Source of the DNA: Roseithermus sacchariphilus
GTDB lineage: Bacteria > Bacteroidota > Rhodothermia > Rhodothermales > MEBIC09517
Direction: 5' to 3'
DNA: 64,000 bases
Assembly (NCBI GenBank): GCA_003285105.1
Contig: CP030158.1
Location: forward strand, 1,588,501 to 1,652,500
The notes under the pieces were generated by a model. That model ran no database searches. It was not told the DNA's origin and saw only the letters and a program-made list of their open reading frames with translations. Below are positions 2,726 through 62,519 of this stretch, piece by piece (the first letter of the stretch is position 1; every line of letters starts with the position of its first letter). The translations under genes were made by a program, and so were the position numbers.

Positions 2726-2835
2726 CGGCGCCCGTCCGCGGAGCAGGGTAAAAACGCGGGACACGCCGGGGCCGGGCTCACAGGAGTAGGTATTCACAGA
2801 ACGTGGCGGAGGAGACCCCTGGTGCCTGTGCAACC

Positions 2836-2934
2836 GTCATCCCCGACCCCGTCATCCCCGACCCCGTCATCCCCGACCCCGTCATCCCCGACCCCGTCAT
2901 CCCCGACCCCGTCATCCCCGACCCGATCGGGGAT
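2836..2934. repeat. Six 15-bp tandem repeats ending in a hairpin
   Basis: The unit GTCATCCCCGACCCC occurs six times head to tail from 2836 to 2925, the last copy with one changed base. ATCCCCGA of the last copy (2914-2921) pairs with TCGGGGAT (2927-2934), so any of the six copies could compete for one partner strand. The following 70 bp (GATCCAGGGAG, then TGGATTCCGGCTTTCACGG) look like a dispersed intergenic repeat family seen in many bacteria. The rest of the 2624-3216 gap holds the promoter above and nothing else I can support. Confidence 0.85.
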
Positions 2935-8041: not shown

Positions 8042-8743
8042 TCAGTGGGTGAGCGCGTAGATGATGAAGTTGAGGCCCATCTGGAAGCTGACGGTGGAGG
8101 CGTTTCCCACGTTGCGTTCGGGCCATTCCCAGCCGTCGCCGATGTCCTGGTTGAAACAGGCCAGGGCCATCATGCGGCCGTGGTCGTCGAAGTAGGCGAG
8201 GTAGCGGTCCTCGTACCGGCCGAAGCCGCCGCTCACGTTCGAGGGGGCCTCGACGGGGTCGATGGTGTAGTAGATGTCCCAGATGGGATGGTCGGGCGGG
8301 ATCTCGACGGGTTGCCGGTCCGGGAAGACGCGGGCCATCTCGTGTTCGAGCTGGAGCCATTCGCGGAGTCCGCGGAAGTCGTCGAAGAGGATGAAGCCAC
8401 CGCGCTCCAGGTAGGCCCGGAGCCGGCCGACCTCGGCCTCGGTCATCGACCAGTAGCCGGGTTCGCAGAGGTAGAGGATGGGGTAGTCGAAGATGCGCGG
8501 GTCGTCGAGGTCGAGGACGATGGGTGGGGGTTCGACGCGGATGGAGGTGGTGCGTTTGAGGGCTTCGTAGAGGTTGTGTTCGGCCGTCGGGTAGTCGTGT
8601 GCCCAGGCGTCGCCGCCCCATCGGCGGCTTCGCAGGTCCTCGAAGCGGACGCGCACGAAGCGGAAGCCGGTGTCGTCCTGGGCCCGGAGGTCCGGGGCGG
8701 CCAGGAGCAACGGGCTGAGGAGGAGGCAGAGGAGGGCGCGCAT
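8042..8743 (-). CDS. DUF4159 protein, exported (copy 1)
   Basis: A 233-residue DUF4159 protein with a signal peptide (LLCLLLSPLLLAAPDLRAQ). Visible family features are DDPRIFDYPILYLCEPGYW, a GGFILFDDFRG strand typical of class-I-glutamine-amidotransferase-like folds, DHPIWDIYY and the C-terminal NQDIGDGWEWPERN. No catalytic cysteine triad is apparent, so it is probably a binding or structural module. It sits 22 bp after the TPR-metallopeptidase gene and about 100 bp before moxR in one minus-strand operon. A clear paralogue opens the divergent arm at 14548. Confidence 0.85.
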   Translation of the reverse strand: MRALLCLLLSPLLLAAPDLRAQDDTGFRFVRVRFEDLRSRRWGGDAWAHDYPTAEHNLYEALKRTTSIRVEPPPIVLDLDDPRIFDYPILYLCEPGYWSMTEAEVGRLRAYLERGGFILFDDFRGLREWLQLEHEMARVFPDRQPVEIPPDHPIWDIYYTIDPVEAPSNVSGGFGRYEDRYLAYFDDHGRMMALACFNQDIGDGWEWPERNVGNASTVSFQMGLNFIIYALTH

Positions 8744-13248: not shown

Positions 13249-13765
13249 GGGCGGCGGCGCGGCATGGCGGACTGGGACATCGGAAAAGTATGCCTCGTCG
13301 CGGTACCGAAAGACACGCGGCGACCGCGGAGAGGCGACGTGCAGACCTGATCGGCACCAGCAGCAAATCCGGTGCCAGTAAGGGTCAGGCATGCCGGGGC
13401 CGACCTGCCGGAAGGAGGGGCGGTGGATTGGGTGTCGTGCGGAAGCGAGGTGTACCCCACGTGTCGGCCGATGGCGGGACGTAGAGTAGCCGTCCGCCGG
13501 CAACGGTGGTGGGGTAATGAGGCCCGGCTTCGGGAGAGGCCGGGCCTCGTTCATCATGGCCGGGCGGGGCAGCGGCGGCGTCGCCCCGCGGCAGATGCCG
13601 GGGCGAACAGGATGCCGCCGGCGAGGAGCCCCGGCGGTACCGGCGCGCAGCCGGAACGCAGCCGGAACGCACGGCGGCAGCGGGCATGAATGGCGGACGT
13701 GGACCCGCCGAAACGCGTCCGGGGCCGTTGCGGGGGCAGGCCGGGCGAGAGCCGGTGCGGCAGCG
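13249..13765. other. Intergenic region between the PAS-Hpt gene and the 64-residue gene
   Basis: About 517 bp without a supported gene. It contains a possible minus-strand promoter for the PAS-Hpt gene (CTTTCG at 13312-13307, then TACTTTTC at 13290-13283) and the hairpin listed separately. Short open frames on both strands have no protein-like character. Confidence 0.5.
13519..13548. other. Perfect 10-bp inverted repeat
   Basis: GAGGCCCGGC (13519-13528) is complementary to GCCGGGCCTC (13539-13548) with a 10-nt loop. No T-run follows on either strand, so it may be a factor-assisted terminator or an intergenic hairpin of another kind. Confidence 0.5.
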
Positions 13766-13960
13766 TCAGGCCTTCCGGGCGTCGATGCCGTCCAGCATAC
13801 CTTTCCAGTAGGCGTGGAACGGTTGGTTGTGCAGGCGCCAGAAGGCGATCGCCGACTTGATGGCTTTCACGCGCGGGGGGCGTTTGCCCTTCAGCCCGTC
13901 CTCATAGCCGTTGTCGTAGGCGTCACTCAGGGCAGCTTCTTTGTTCCAACCGTCCATCAT
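13766..13960 (-). CDS. Small hypothetical protein, 64 residues
   Basis: A 64-residue basic, soluble protein beginning MMDGWNKEAALSDAYDNGYE and ending WKGMLDGIDARKA. I do not recognise a family. Support for it being real is a normal amino-acid mix (Tyr, Asn, Lys and Trp in a GC-rich genome, unlike the Arg/Ala/Pro-rich shadow frames), the paired motif DNGYEDGLKG, and AT-rich DNA just upstream (13985-14015, with TTTG and TAATAATC on the minus strand) that could be a promoter. There is no signal peptide and no clear Shine-Dalgarno. Confidence 0.6.
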   Translation of the reverse strand: MMDGWNKEAALSDAYDNGYEDGLKGKRPPRVKAIKSAIAFWRLHNQPFHAYWKGMLDGIDARKA

Positions 13961-14262
13961 CGGTAGCGGAGCTTGGGTGAGGTGAAAAGATTATTACACT
14001 CTATACAAACCGGGGCGTCCATCCGGGTTCCGGCGGTGCTTTCCGGGGAGGCGTCTGCAGAGGAGCCGATGCGTCCTTCGCTTCGTAACGGATGCCGTCT
14101 TTTGCCTCGTGCCGGATGGAGCCGCCCGGCAGCCGACGGGTATTCTTTTGTCCATCGGGCGCTGTTTCTCAGCGGTACCCTCACACCCACCCCGCCGCCA
14201 TCGGGTCGGGCATCTACCCCTCCGTCGCGGCGCGACACCTGCATGGGGGCTACTGGCTACTG

Positions 14263-14444
14263 GCTGAAGGCTGACCGCTGAAGGCTGACCGCTGAAGGCT
14301 GACCGCTGAAGGCTGACCGCTGAAGGCTGACCGCTGAAGGCTGACCGCTGAAGGCTGACCGCTGAAGGCTGACCGCTGAAGGCTGACCGCTGAAGGCTGA
14401 CCGCTGAAGGCTGACCGCTGAAGGCTGACCGCTGAAGGCTGACC
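14263..14444. repeat. Thirteen perfect 14-bp tandem repeats (heptamer pairs)
   Basis: GCTGAAGGCTGACC is repeated exactly 13 times without a mismatch. The unit is two related heptamers, GCTGAAG and GCTGACC. Direct tandem copies with no spacers rule out CRISPR. The array lies about 100 bp upstream of the DUF4159 copy 2 gene, in the 587-bp gap 13961-14547, which otherwise shows only the promoter-like AT-rich stretch at its left edge. Related heptamers recur at 62401-62477. Confidence 0.95.
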
Positions 14445-14547
14445 GCACAGGGGGAGCGATGTTCGGGTAACGCATCGAGCGGGTGGGTGCAACCGGGCCG
14501 GCGGTCCGGCCGTTACCTGTGCATTCGCCGATCCTCCGCGCCCTCCC

Positions 14548-15369
14548 ATGCACGCGCTCCCCTGGTGGTCCTGGTTGTTGTGGCTGCTGGCAGCCCCTCC
14601 CGGCGCCGCCCCGTCGGTGCCCAGTCCGGTAGCGCCCGGTCCGGTGCCGCCGGCCGCCCGGTCCCTGCCGCCGGCCCCGCAGGTCACGCCGCCGGCTCCC
14701 GGCGGACTGGGCTTCCAGTTCGTTCGCATCCGGTACCGCAGCGCACGCCGCACCTGGCGGGGCTACGGCACCTGGGCCTACGACTGGCCCACCGCGGAGG
14801 CGAACCTCGTCAGAGCCATCGAACGCACCACCGCGCTCCACCTCGACGGCGAGCCGATCGTCCTCGACCTCACCGACCCGCGCATCTTCGATTACCCCAT
14901 CCTCTACCTCTGTGAACCCGGCTACTGGATCACCGATGAGGAGGAGGTGGCCGCCCTGCGCGATTACCTCACCCGCGGCGGCTTTCTCATCATCGACGAC
15001 TTCCACGACTACGGCGACGGGCAGGTCGGGCCCGAGTGGGAAAACTTTTATGACAACCTCCGGCAGGTCTTCCCCGACCGGGAGCTGATCGAGCTGACGC
15101 CGGACCATCCGATCTGGCACATCTACTACGACATCGACCCGGTCCGAGCCGTCTCGACCAAGCGCGAATCCGGCGAGGTGCCCTGGCTGGACGAGGACGA
15201 CGACACGTACTACGGCCTGTTCGACGACGACGGGCGGCTGATGGTCGTCGTCTGTTACAACCAGGACATCGGCGACGGCTGGGAATGGCCCGAACGCAAC
15301 CTGTACGAGGCCTCCACGGTTAGCTTCCAGATGGCAATCAATTTCATCCTGTACGCCCTCACGCATTGA
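14548..15369 (+). CDS. DUF4159 protein (copy 2), first gene of the plus arm
   Basis: A 273-residue DUF4159 protein with an N-terminal hydrophobic segment (WWSWLLWLLAAPPGAAP) and a Pro/Ala-rich stretch before the domain, which starts FQFVRIRYRSARR. It shares long near-identical blocks with copy 1: DPRIFDYPILYLCEPGYW, TPDHPIWHIYYDIDPV, NQDIGDGWEWPERN and the C-terminus FILYALTH. Copy 2 has an acidic insert (WLDEDDDTYY) that copy 1 lacks. It is about 90 bp before the BatA gene and probably co-transcribed with it. Function unknown. Confidence 0.85.
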   Translation: MHALPWWSWLLWLLAAPPGAAPSVPSPVAPGPVPPAARSLPPAPQVTPPAPGGLGFQFVRIRYRSARRTWRGYGTWAYDWPTAEANLVRAIERTTALHLDGEPIVLDLTDPRIFDYPILYLCEPGYWITDEEEVAALRDYLTRGGFLIIDDFHDYGDGQVGPEWENFYDNLRQVFPDRELIELTPDHPIWHIYYDIDPVRAVSTKRESGEVPWLDEDDDTYYGLFDDDGRLMVVVCYNQDIGDGWEWPERNLYEASTVSFQMAINFILYALTH

Positions 15370-62264: not shown

Positions 62265-62300
62265 GGGCCGGTCGGGTAGCGCGTGACGAGGGTCGAGGAC

Positions 62301-62349
62301 CGAGTGTCGAGTGTCGAATGTCGAGTGTCGAGTGTCGAGTGTCGAAGGT
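62301..62349. repeat. Seven tandem heptamers of the CGAGTGT type
   Basis: CGAGTGT in seven consecutive units, with CGAATGT and CGAAGGT variants. First of three heptamer tracts in the 369-bp gap 62265-62633. Confidence 0.9.
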
Positions 62350-62400
62350 CAGCGGAAGCGGCGAGGGTTGCCACCGCCGGGTCAAGCCCACCTCCTGAAA

Positions 62401-62477
62401 GCTGATGGCCGATGGCCGATGGCTGATGGCCGATGGCTGATGGCCGAAAGCTGATGGCTGAAAGCCGAGTGTCGAAT
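62401..62477. repeat. Eleven tandem heptamers of the GCTGATG/GCCGATG type
   Basis: Units GCTGATG, GCCGATG, GCTGAAA, GCCGAAA and related forms follow one another in register over 77 bp. They are close to the GCTGAAG/GCTGACC heptamers at 14263-14444, and the last units (GCCGAGT, GTCGAAT) merge into the CGAGTGT type. Confidence 0.9.
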
Positions 62478-62479
62478 GT

Positions 62480-62519
62480 ACAAAGGGCGAAGGACAAAGG
62501 GCGAAGGACAAAGGGCGAC
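62480..62519. repeat. Nearly three tandem 14-mers of the ACAAAGGGCGAAGG type
   Basis: ACAAAGGGCGAAGG repeats twice and then partially. Each 14-mer is twice seven bases. Similar CGAAGGG motifs occur at 7958-7978 upstream of moxR. Confidence 0.85.

What the first reader, a model, noticed from the sequence alone, without database searches (positions are those of the whole stretch)
14263..14444. Perfect 13 x 14 bp array built from heptamers
Thirteen error-free copies of GCTGAAGGCTGACC suggest recent expansion. Each unit is two heptamers. Short tandemly repeated heptamers (STRR) are known from heterocystous cyanobacteria; here a comparable class appears in a likely Bacteroidota genome, just upstream of the plus arm.
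Basis: partly seen in the sequence, partly recalled or inferred. Interest (0 to 1): 0.55.

Follow-up and report, generated by a model that had tools for sequence, protein, structure and literature searches.

The report
Heptamer arrays riding a hairpin element
A run of perfectly repeated seven-letter DNA words turns out to be one of roughly a hundred such runs scattered between the genes of this bacterium, many joined in a fixed direction to a dispersed hairpin-forming DNA element, with no sign so far that they control the neighbouring genes.

Summary
The array is real: 13.1 perfect copies of GCTGAAGGCTGACC at 14263-14446, with the heptamer register extending upstream to 14248 as GGCTACT units. 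This 14-mer occurs at one place in the 4.81 Mb genome, but the class is common: GGCTNNN x5 gives 497 hits and no reversed-control hits, the most of 394 phylum genomes. The exact 28-mer also lies in Anaerolineae, Verrucomicrobiales and cyanobacterial records.

Of 32 E loci in this genome, 29 carry a heptamer chain in the same orientation. E copies fetched from four other genomes carry none (0 of 45). Arrays are directional, GCTGA units following other GCT units in 53 of 62, and variation avoids the GCT core.

Best reading: an intergenic minisatellite amplified mostly in 14-bp steps and spread together with E. No preference for promoter gaps was seen. No RVT_1 reverse transcriptase or Y1 transposase was detected in the genome. 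How arrays are written and how E moves remain inferred.

The parts
14263..14446 (+). Perfect array of GCTGAAGGCTGACC, 13.1 copies
   Evidence: Tandem Repeats Finder; letters; only place in the genome with this unit
14248..14265 (+). GGCTACT heptamers in the same register, upstream end of the array
   Evidence: Tandem Repeats Finder, 2.6 copies, 100%; unit list
14214..14243 (+). Truncated 5' half of the dispersed hairpin element E, same orientation as the array
   Evidence: G000:C1:1602714-1602743 matches the E pattern with 3 mismatches; the heptamers begin inside what would be the 3' hairpin
14193..14213 (+). Remnant of the linker that precedes E in tandem copies (GCCGCCATCG type)
   Evidence: BLAST matches starting near query position 714, i.e. 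window 14193; comparison with copies
14548..15369 (+). DUF4159 gene downstream of the array (neighbour, not part of it)
   Evidence: ORF; PF13709, E 4.2e-48
13766..13960 (-). 64-aa ORF upstream, divergent neighbour; may or may not be a gene
   Evidence: ORF; no Pfam match
62283..62518 (.). Cluster of three other heptamer arrays in the window (GTGTCGA; GATGGCC/GATGGCT; ACAAAGGGCGAAGG), same class, different units
   Evidence: Tandem Repeats Finder; letters

Best explanation
An intergenic, apparently non-coding heptamer minisatellite: one member of a large family of NGCTNNN heptamer arrays in this genome, joined to a decayed copy of a dispersed multi-hairpin element (E). Shown: the arrays, their abundance, their fixed orientation next to E, E-array junctions shared between distant loci, the unit order, the predominance of 14-bp amplicons, the conserved GCT core, and the lack of preference for promoter-bearing gaps. 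Inferred: copies are added and lost by slipped-strand replication or unequal exchange, mostly two heptamers at a time; E, whose hairpins could stall replication forks, carried or nucleated arrays in its spacer and spread with them as a composite; the 13 identical copies here are a recent burst from a GGCTGAA-GGCTGAC type seed. It most likely has no dedicated role at the DUF4159 operon.
For: 35 of 44 E copies have a same-orientation heptamer chain within 170 bp, 4 an opposite one; 0.7% of random 170-bp windows have any chain; 0 of 45 E copies in G010, G022, G019 and G051. As loci: 29 of 32 same, 4 of 32 opposite. Junction CAAGCGGCTGGCTNCTGGCT shared by four distant loci and GGGGAGGAGCTTCTGGCT by three. 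Native spacers have TCGTG in 8 of 16 distinct G010 spacers, and 15 of 24 array-E junctions keep GGC[ATG]TCGT[GA]. Of 95 arrays, 48 have an exact run of three or more copies, 30 of them with a 14-bp unit. 85 of 95 arrays lie between predicted ORFs, in all gap types. A GGCTTGA array beside a conserved flank has 6, 6 plus part, and 7 plus part units in three species of one genus.
Against: Plain slippage should spread variation over all seven columns, but GCT is nearly fixed while columns 1 and 7 differ in over 40% of neighbouring units (motif-free check). It does not predict the unit order either. Heptamer arrays occur in other genomes without E: 24 of the 25 array-bearing genomes have no E by the pattern. 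About half the chains here are not near E (45 of 95). Spacer lengths of native + 7n hold for two short spacers but not for two longer ones. No array-strand bias with replication direction was seen. The array folds worse than shuffles.
Confidence: 0.6

Rival explanations
1. Landing-pad model: heptamer arrays came first and E inserts preferentially into them, so arrays end up on both sides of E in one orientation.
For: Many E copies have arrays on both sides in the same orientation. 45 of 95 chains lie away from E. Literature: some REP families sit inside particular target palindromes (PMC3733652 section 7).
Against: Right junctions fall at variable positions inside E, some shared between loci, not at fixed E ends. 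In G010 single copies start at CTACCCC, a different permutation from copies here that are flanked by heptamers. Insertion alone does not explain why orientation is fixed.
Confidence: 0.2
2. The arrays are protein-binding platforms with a conserved GCT core at 7-bp spacing, with a regulatory or chromosome-structure role.
For: GCT is the most conserved trinucleotide in 52 of 97 informative arrays without using a motif, CTG in 21, GGC in 13; interior mismatch 1-4% at GCT against 21-46% elsewhere.
Against: No preference for divergent gaps or for one side of genes; no promoter-like site around the window array; copy number and unit sequence differ widely between arrays. No binding protein was looked for.
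Confidence: 0.1
3. The arrays are written by an enzyme that makes templated tandem-repeat DNA, as reported for the DRT10 reverse transcriptase system.
For: DRT10 makes tandem-repeat DNA on an RNA template (PMC12632851, abstract only). Directional unit order and fixed core would suit a template.
Against: No RVT_1 match in this complete genome, while the control rings in 3 of 14 known genomes. A divergent reverse transcriptase outside PF00078, or one since lost, is not excluded.
Confidence: 0.04
4. Assembly artefact, or part of a gene read from the minus strand.
For: Two minus-strand ORFs (167 and 369 aa) run through the array. No reads were available.
Against: Many diverse, imperfect arrays of the class exist, so the class is no artefact. 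The longer minus-strand ORF lies antisense to the DUF4159 gene, which has a clear Pfam match, and 85 of 95 arrays lie outside predicted ORFs.
Confidence: 0.03

Closest known systems
STRR heptanucleotide repeats of heterocystous cyanobacteria (recalled; three heptanucleotides of Calothrix are mentioned in PMC4692102 section 3)
   Same: Short tandem heptamers in non-coding DNA, many loci per genome; the exact 28-mer of this array occurs in two cyanobacterial records
   Different: Here joined to a dispersed hairpin element in fixed orientation, with a directional unit order; published STRR unit sequences were not compared
TAACTGA heptamer repeats of Beggiatoaceae, cyanobacteria and five Bacteroidetes (PMC4679880)
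   Same: Intergenic heptamer arrays, in part long, mixed with other heptamers, patchy across phyla
   Different: Other unit (GCT core); most Beggiatoaceae sets lie just upstream of start codons, whereas this array ends 101 bp before the DUF4159 start and the class shows no gap preference
GGGNATC quadruplex heptamers of Xanthomonas and Nostoc (PMC4692102, abstract and section 3 read)
   Same: Genome-wide intergenic heptamer class
   Different: This unit has no run of three G, so the G-tract rule is not met
Heptanucleotide long simple sequence repeats of Mrazek 2007 (as told in PMC4679880 section 3)
   Same: Heptanucleotides as the most abundant class; polymerase slippage proposed as cause
   Different: Slippage alone does not explain the core and flank asymmetry or the unit order seen here
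REP / GTAG- and CGTC-tagged palindromes and MITEs (PMC3733652)
   Same: E is a dispersed, hairpin-rich, intergenic repeat, often in clusters, with CTAC (GTAG on the other strand) and CGTC within it
   Different: E is about 130-165 bp with several hairpins rather than one 20-40 bp palindrome, and no Y1 (RAYT-type) transposase was found

Membership tests
Heptameric long simple sequence repeats / STRR-like class | Head-to-tail units of 7 bp | tested here: met
Heptameric long simple sequence repeats / STRR-like class | Many loci in one genome, over chance | tested here: met
   497 hits against 0 control; shuffles
Heptameric long simple sequence repeats / STRR-like class | Non-coding location | tested here: met
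   85 of 95 arrays outside predicted ORFs, 9 overlapping, 1 at an edge; crude ORF call
STRR of heterocystous cyanobacteria in the strict sense | Published STRR unit sequence in a heterocystous cyanobacterium | not tested
   Genome unnamed; published units not compared
TAACTGA repeats (MacGregor 2015) | Unit TAACTGA | tested here: not met
   Unit is GCTGAAG/GCTGACC
GGGNATC G-quadruplex heptamers | Runs of three or more G in each unit | tested here: not met
   Longest G run in the unit is two
REP / RAYT system (for element E) | Single short palindrome of 20-40 bp with an unpaired tag | tested here: not met
   E has several hairpins over about 130-165 bp
REP / RAYT system (for element E) | Y1 tyrosine transposase in the genome | tested here: not met
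   PF01797: no match in the own genome; control rings in 5 of 14
DRT10-like templated repeat synthesis | Reverse transcriptase gene in the genome | tested here: not met
   PF00078: no match in the own genome; control rings in 3 of 14
Phase-variation repeats | Copy number alters expression of a neighbouring gene | not testable with these tools
   Needs isolates and expression data

The most novel reading that the evidence does not exclude
Heptamer arrays across bacterial phyla are products of a directional, core-anchored array-writing process: each added unit keeps a short core (here GCT or GCTGA) while the next bases are free to vary, and the order of units along an array records the order of addition. 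In this lineage the process starts or lands at the hairpins of a dispersed element.
Probability: 0.12. Interest if true: 0.85.

Novelty: new variant of a known kind. Interest (0 to 1): 0.5.

Why it matters
Why seven-base repeats recur in unrelated bacteria is an old, little-studied question. This genome gives four handles in one complete chromosome: fixed orientation to a hairpin element, shared junctions, a reproducible unit order, and a core that hardly varies while its flanks do. Plain replication slippage does not predict the last two, so they can separate slippage, co-dispersal with an element, selection for binding, and an active writing process.

Tried and rejected
Reverse-transcriptase writing: no RVT_1 match in the genome. 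RAYT-driven spread of E: no Y1 transposase. Rfam on four E loci gave one sub-threshold match, to P35 sRNA at E 0.94, taken as chance. Bias of array strand with replication direction: counted by 400 kb bins against the GC-skew sign of the sampled stretches, none seen. Spacer length = native + 7n: two 39-bp spacers fit the 32-bp native length, but two longer ones (62 and 104 bp as that script counts) do not, and the script's second pattern missed the TTCTTCC subtype; inconclusive. DNA folding: 114 nt of the array fold worse than all of 200 shuffles, z +3.7; the window E remnant z -0.5; E stretch L065:1900-2000 z -1.6. A strict self-similarity scan undercounted degenerate arrays, so it was loosened. 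The first form of the unit-order test, with edge units kept, was weaker: 53 against 15 overall and 10 against 4 in the sample alone, p 0.19. It was repeated with one edge unit stripped from each end and the four chains dominated by AGCTTTC, which are opposite-strand doubles, dropped (99 to 95 arrays).

Full report
Observation. The sequence at 14263-14446 is a perfect tandem of GCTGAAGGCTGACC (13.1 copies). The heptamer register is longer than reported: it begins at 14248 with GGCTACT units and holds 28 GCT-anchored units. The exact unit exists nowhere else in this genome (12 overlapping hits, one array).

Not unique as a class. GGCTNNN x3 with one mismatch gives 775+820 matches against 29+60 for the reversed control. 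GGCTNNN x5 gives 282+215 against 0, the highest of 394 genomes drawn from the phylum, 25 of which have any; in several other genomes the control pattern also rings, since heptamer arrays of other sequence match it. A systematic sample of 40 stretches of 20 kb (800 kb) has 14 arrays at period 7 by a self-similarity rule, and 19 GCT chains of six or more units by a motif rule, which extrapolates to about 85-115 in the genome. In that sample periods 7, 14 and 21 lead in covered bases; the period 12 and 15 arrays listed there look mostly codon-phased, though ORF overlap was not tested for them.

An attached element. A BLAST search of window 13480-15369 against the genome gave 81 matches, several covering window 14193-14240 as well as the array. 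This led to a dispersed element, E: CTACCCCTCCGTCGCTNCGCGACACC-TCCCCTTCGCAAGGGGAGG, a spacer of about 32 bp, CTTCCCCCTGGCC..CAGGGGGAAGTCCCC..GGGGGAAGGGGGTC, and a linker, often in tandem. With up to three mismatches its core pattern has 44 copies here, 28 in G010, 14 in G022, 2 in G019, 1 in G051 and none in the other 55 of 60 genomes searched, which include the own one. A related pattern is found in 2 of 394 phylum genomes, G000 and G010. The window carries a truncated copy at 14214-14243, and the heptamers take over where its 3' hairpin would be.

Orientation. Of the 44 copies, 35 have a same-orientation heptamer chain of four or more units within 170 bp and 4 an opposite one; 0.7% of random 170-bp windows in the sample have any chain. 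Tandem copies are not independent; counted as 32 loci, 29 have a same-orientation chain, 4 an opposite one, and 3 have no same-orientation chain. Among E copies fetched from G010, G022, G019 and G051, 0 of 45 have a chain. The association is therefore special to this lineage among those examined.

Junctions. After the E 5' half the heptamers start at several positions, but some junctions are shared by loci far apart: CAAGCGGCTGGCTNCTGGCT at four, GGGGAGGAGCTTCTGGCT at three. Shared junctions suggest that E and array moved together. On the other side 15 of 24 copies keep GGC[ATG]TCGT[GA], and TCGTG is native to E spacers without heptamers: 8 of 16 distinct G010 spacers have it. Two 39-bp spacers are one heptamer longer than the native 32 bp, but two longer spacers do not fit native + 7n.

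Unit order. In arrays with both kinds of unit, GCTGA units lie after the other GCT units in 53 of 62 untied arrays (64 mixed, 2 ties; sign test 1.1e-8), in the systematic sample alone in 11 of 13 (p 0.022), and also away from E (21 of 23). The uncorrected first version of this test was weaker (53 against 15; sample 10 against 4). Arrays that share descent are not independent, and shared descent is one explanation of the order.

Core. In arrays found only by self-similarity, then put in register by GCT, successive units differ in the array interior in 46% of cases at column 1, 4%, 1% and 4% at GCT, then 21%, 24% and 42%. Without any motif, GCT is the most conserved trinucleotide in 52 of 97 informative arrays, CTG in 21 and GGC in 13; in the sample alone 7, 4 and 5 of 19. 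The ratio of deviation in the conserved block to the rest is 0.20, against 0.52 in a random null whose minimum over 300 runs was 0.47. That null ignores amplification of variants, so the contrast is somewhat overstated; the identity of the conserved block is not affected by this.

Growth steps. Of 95 arrays, 48 have an exact run of three or more copies: 30 with a 14-bp, 14 with a 7-bp and 4 with a 21-bp unit. The window array has the fifth longest exact 14-bp run of that list. In three species of another genus a GGCTTGA array beside a conserved flank has 6, 6 plus part, and 7 plus part units.

Context. By a crude ORF call, 85 of 95 arrays lie between ORFs: 49 in tandem, 19 in divergent and 17 in convergent gaps, against 234, 71 and 66 such gaps in the long stretches. 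This argues against a promoter role. The window array sits between a minus-strand 64-aa ORF and a DUF4159 gene, which is followed by a BatA/VWA gene. No sigma-70-like site was found, and two weak terminator-like sites lie upstream at 14124 and 14149.

Other phyla. The exact 28-mer (two units) is in four records of other organisms: an Anaerolineae MAG, a Verrucomicrobiales MAG, Oscillatoria sp. SIO1A7 and Stenomitos rutilans (the tool may leave out the own genome). In the first three the variable columns are only, or mainly, the two bases between GCTGA cores; the Stenomitos array is more irregular.

Mechanisms tested. No RVT_1 and no Y1 transposase match in the genome, no Rfam family on E, no replication-strand bias.

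Literature. Heptamer repeats in Bacteroidetes and across phyla are in print (PMC4679880: abstract and sections 3 and 10 read; PMC4692102: abstract and section 3 read). REP palindromes: PMC3733652, abstract, passages and section 7 read; in what I read it names palindromes, not heptamers, as neighbours of REPs. DRT10: PMC12632851, abstract only. PMC4060949: one passage. I found no paper on heptamer arrays joined to a hairpin element in the listings of searches, none of which named such a pairing directly; the library lacks most subscription journals. STRR in heterocystous cyanobacteria is otherwise recalled.

Verdict. Real, a new variant of a known kind. It works like a minisatellite carried by, or grown on, a REP- or MITE-like element. 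Unexplained: why the core is nearly fixed and the order directional.

Noticed in passing
window 62283-62518: Three further heptamer arrays of different units side by side: GTGTCGA, GATGGCC/GATGGCT and ACAAAGGGCGAAGG.
   Followed up: partly
window 2834-2924: Perfect array of the 15-mer CCGTCATCCCCGACC, 6.1 copies; no heptamer register.
   Followed up: no
G000:C1:3012892-3014069 (L081) and 2489812-2490348 (L080): Much larger arrays of GCTGA heptamers, about 1177 and 536 bp, in which BLAST hits step by 98 bp, i.e. 14 heptamers.
   Followed up: partly
G000:C1:252640, 1346664, 2567925 (L109, L107, L104): The only three E loci without a same-orientation heptamer chain; the upstream flanks of the last two resemble those of heptamer-free G010 copies.
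   Followed up: partly
L118, L121, L127, L128 (genome G010): E copies in G010 break off after CCCCTTCGCAT or CCCCTTGGCAA into the same CTTACCTTTACCC sequence; in L118 and L128 an ORF with a Tnp_DNA_bind domain follows, so an insertion sequence seems to enter E at its hairpin loop.
   Followed up: partly
window 8042-8621 (-) and 14548-15369 (+): A DUF4159 gene and a 72% similar stretch lie in opposite directions about 6 kb apart, suggesting an inverted duplication of part of the operon.
   Followed up: no
L227, L228, L229 (genomes G028, G017, G003): Orthologous-looking GGCTTGA array with slightly different copy number in three species of one genus.
   Followed up: partly
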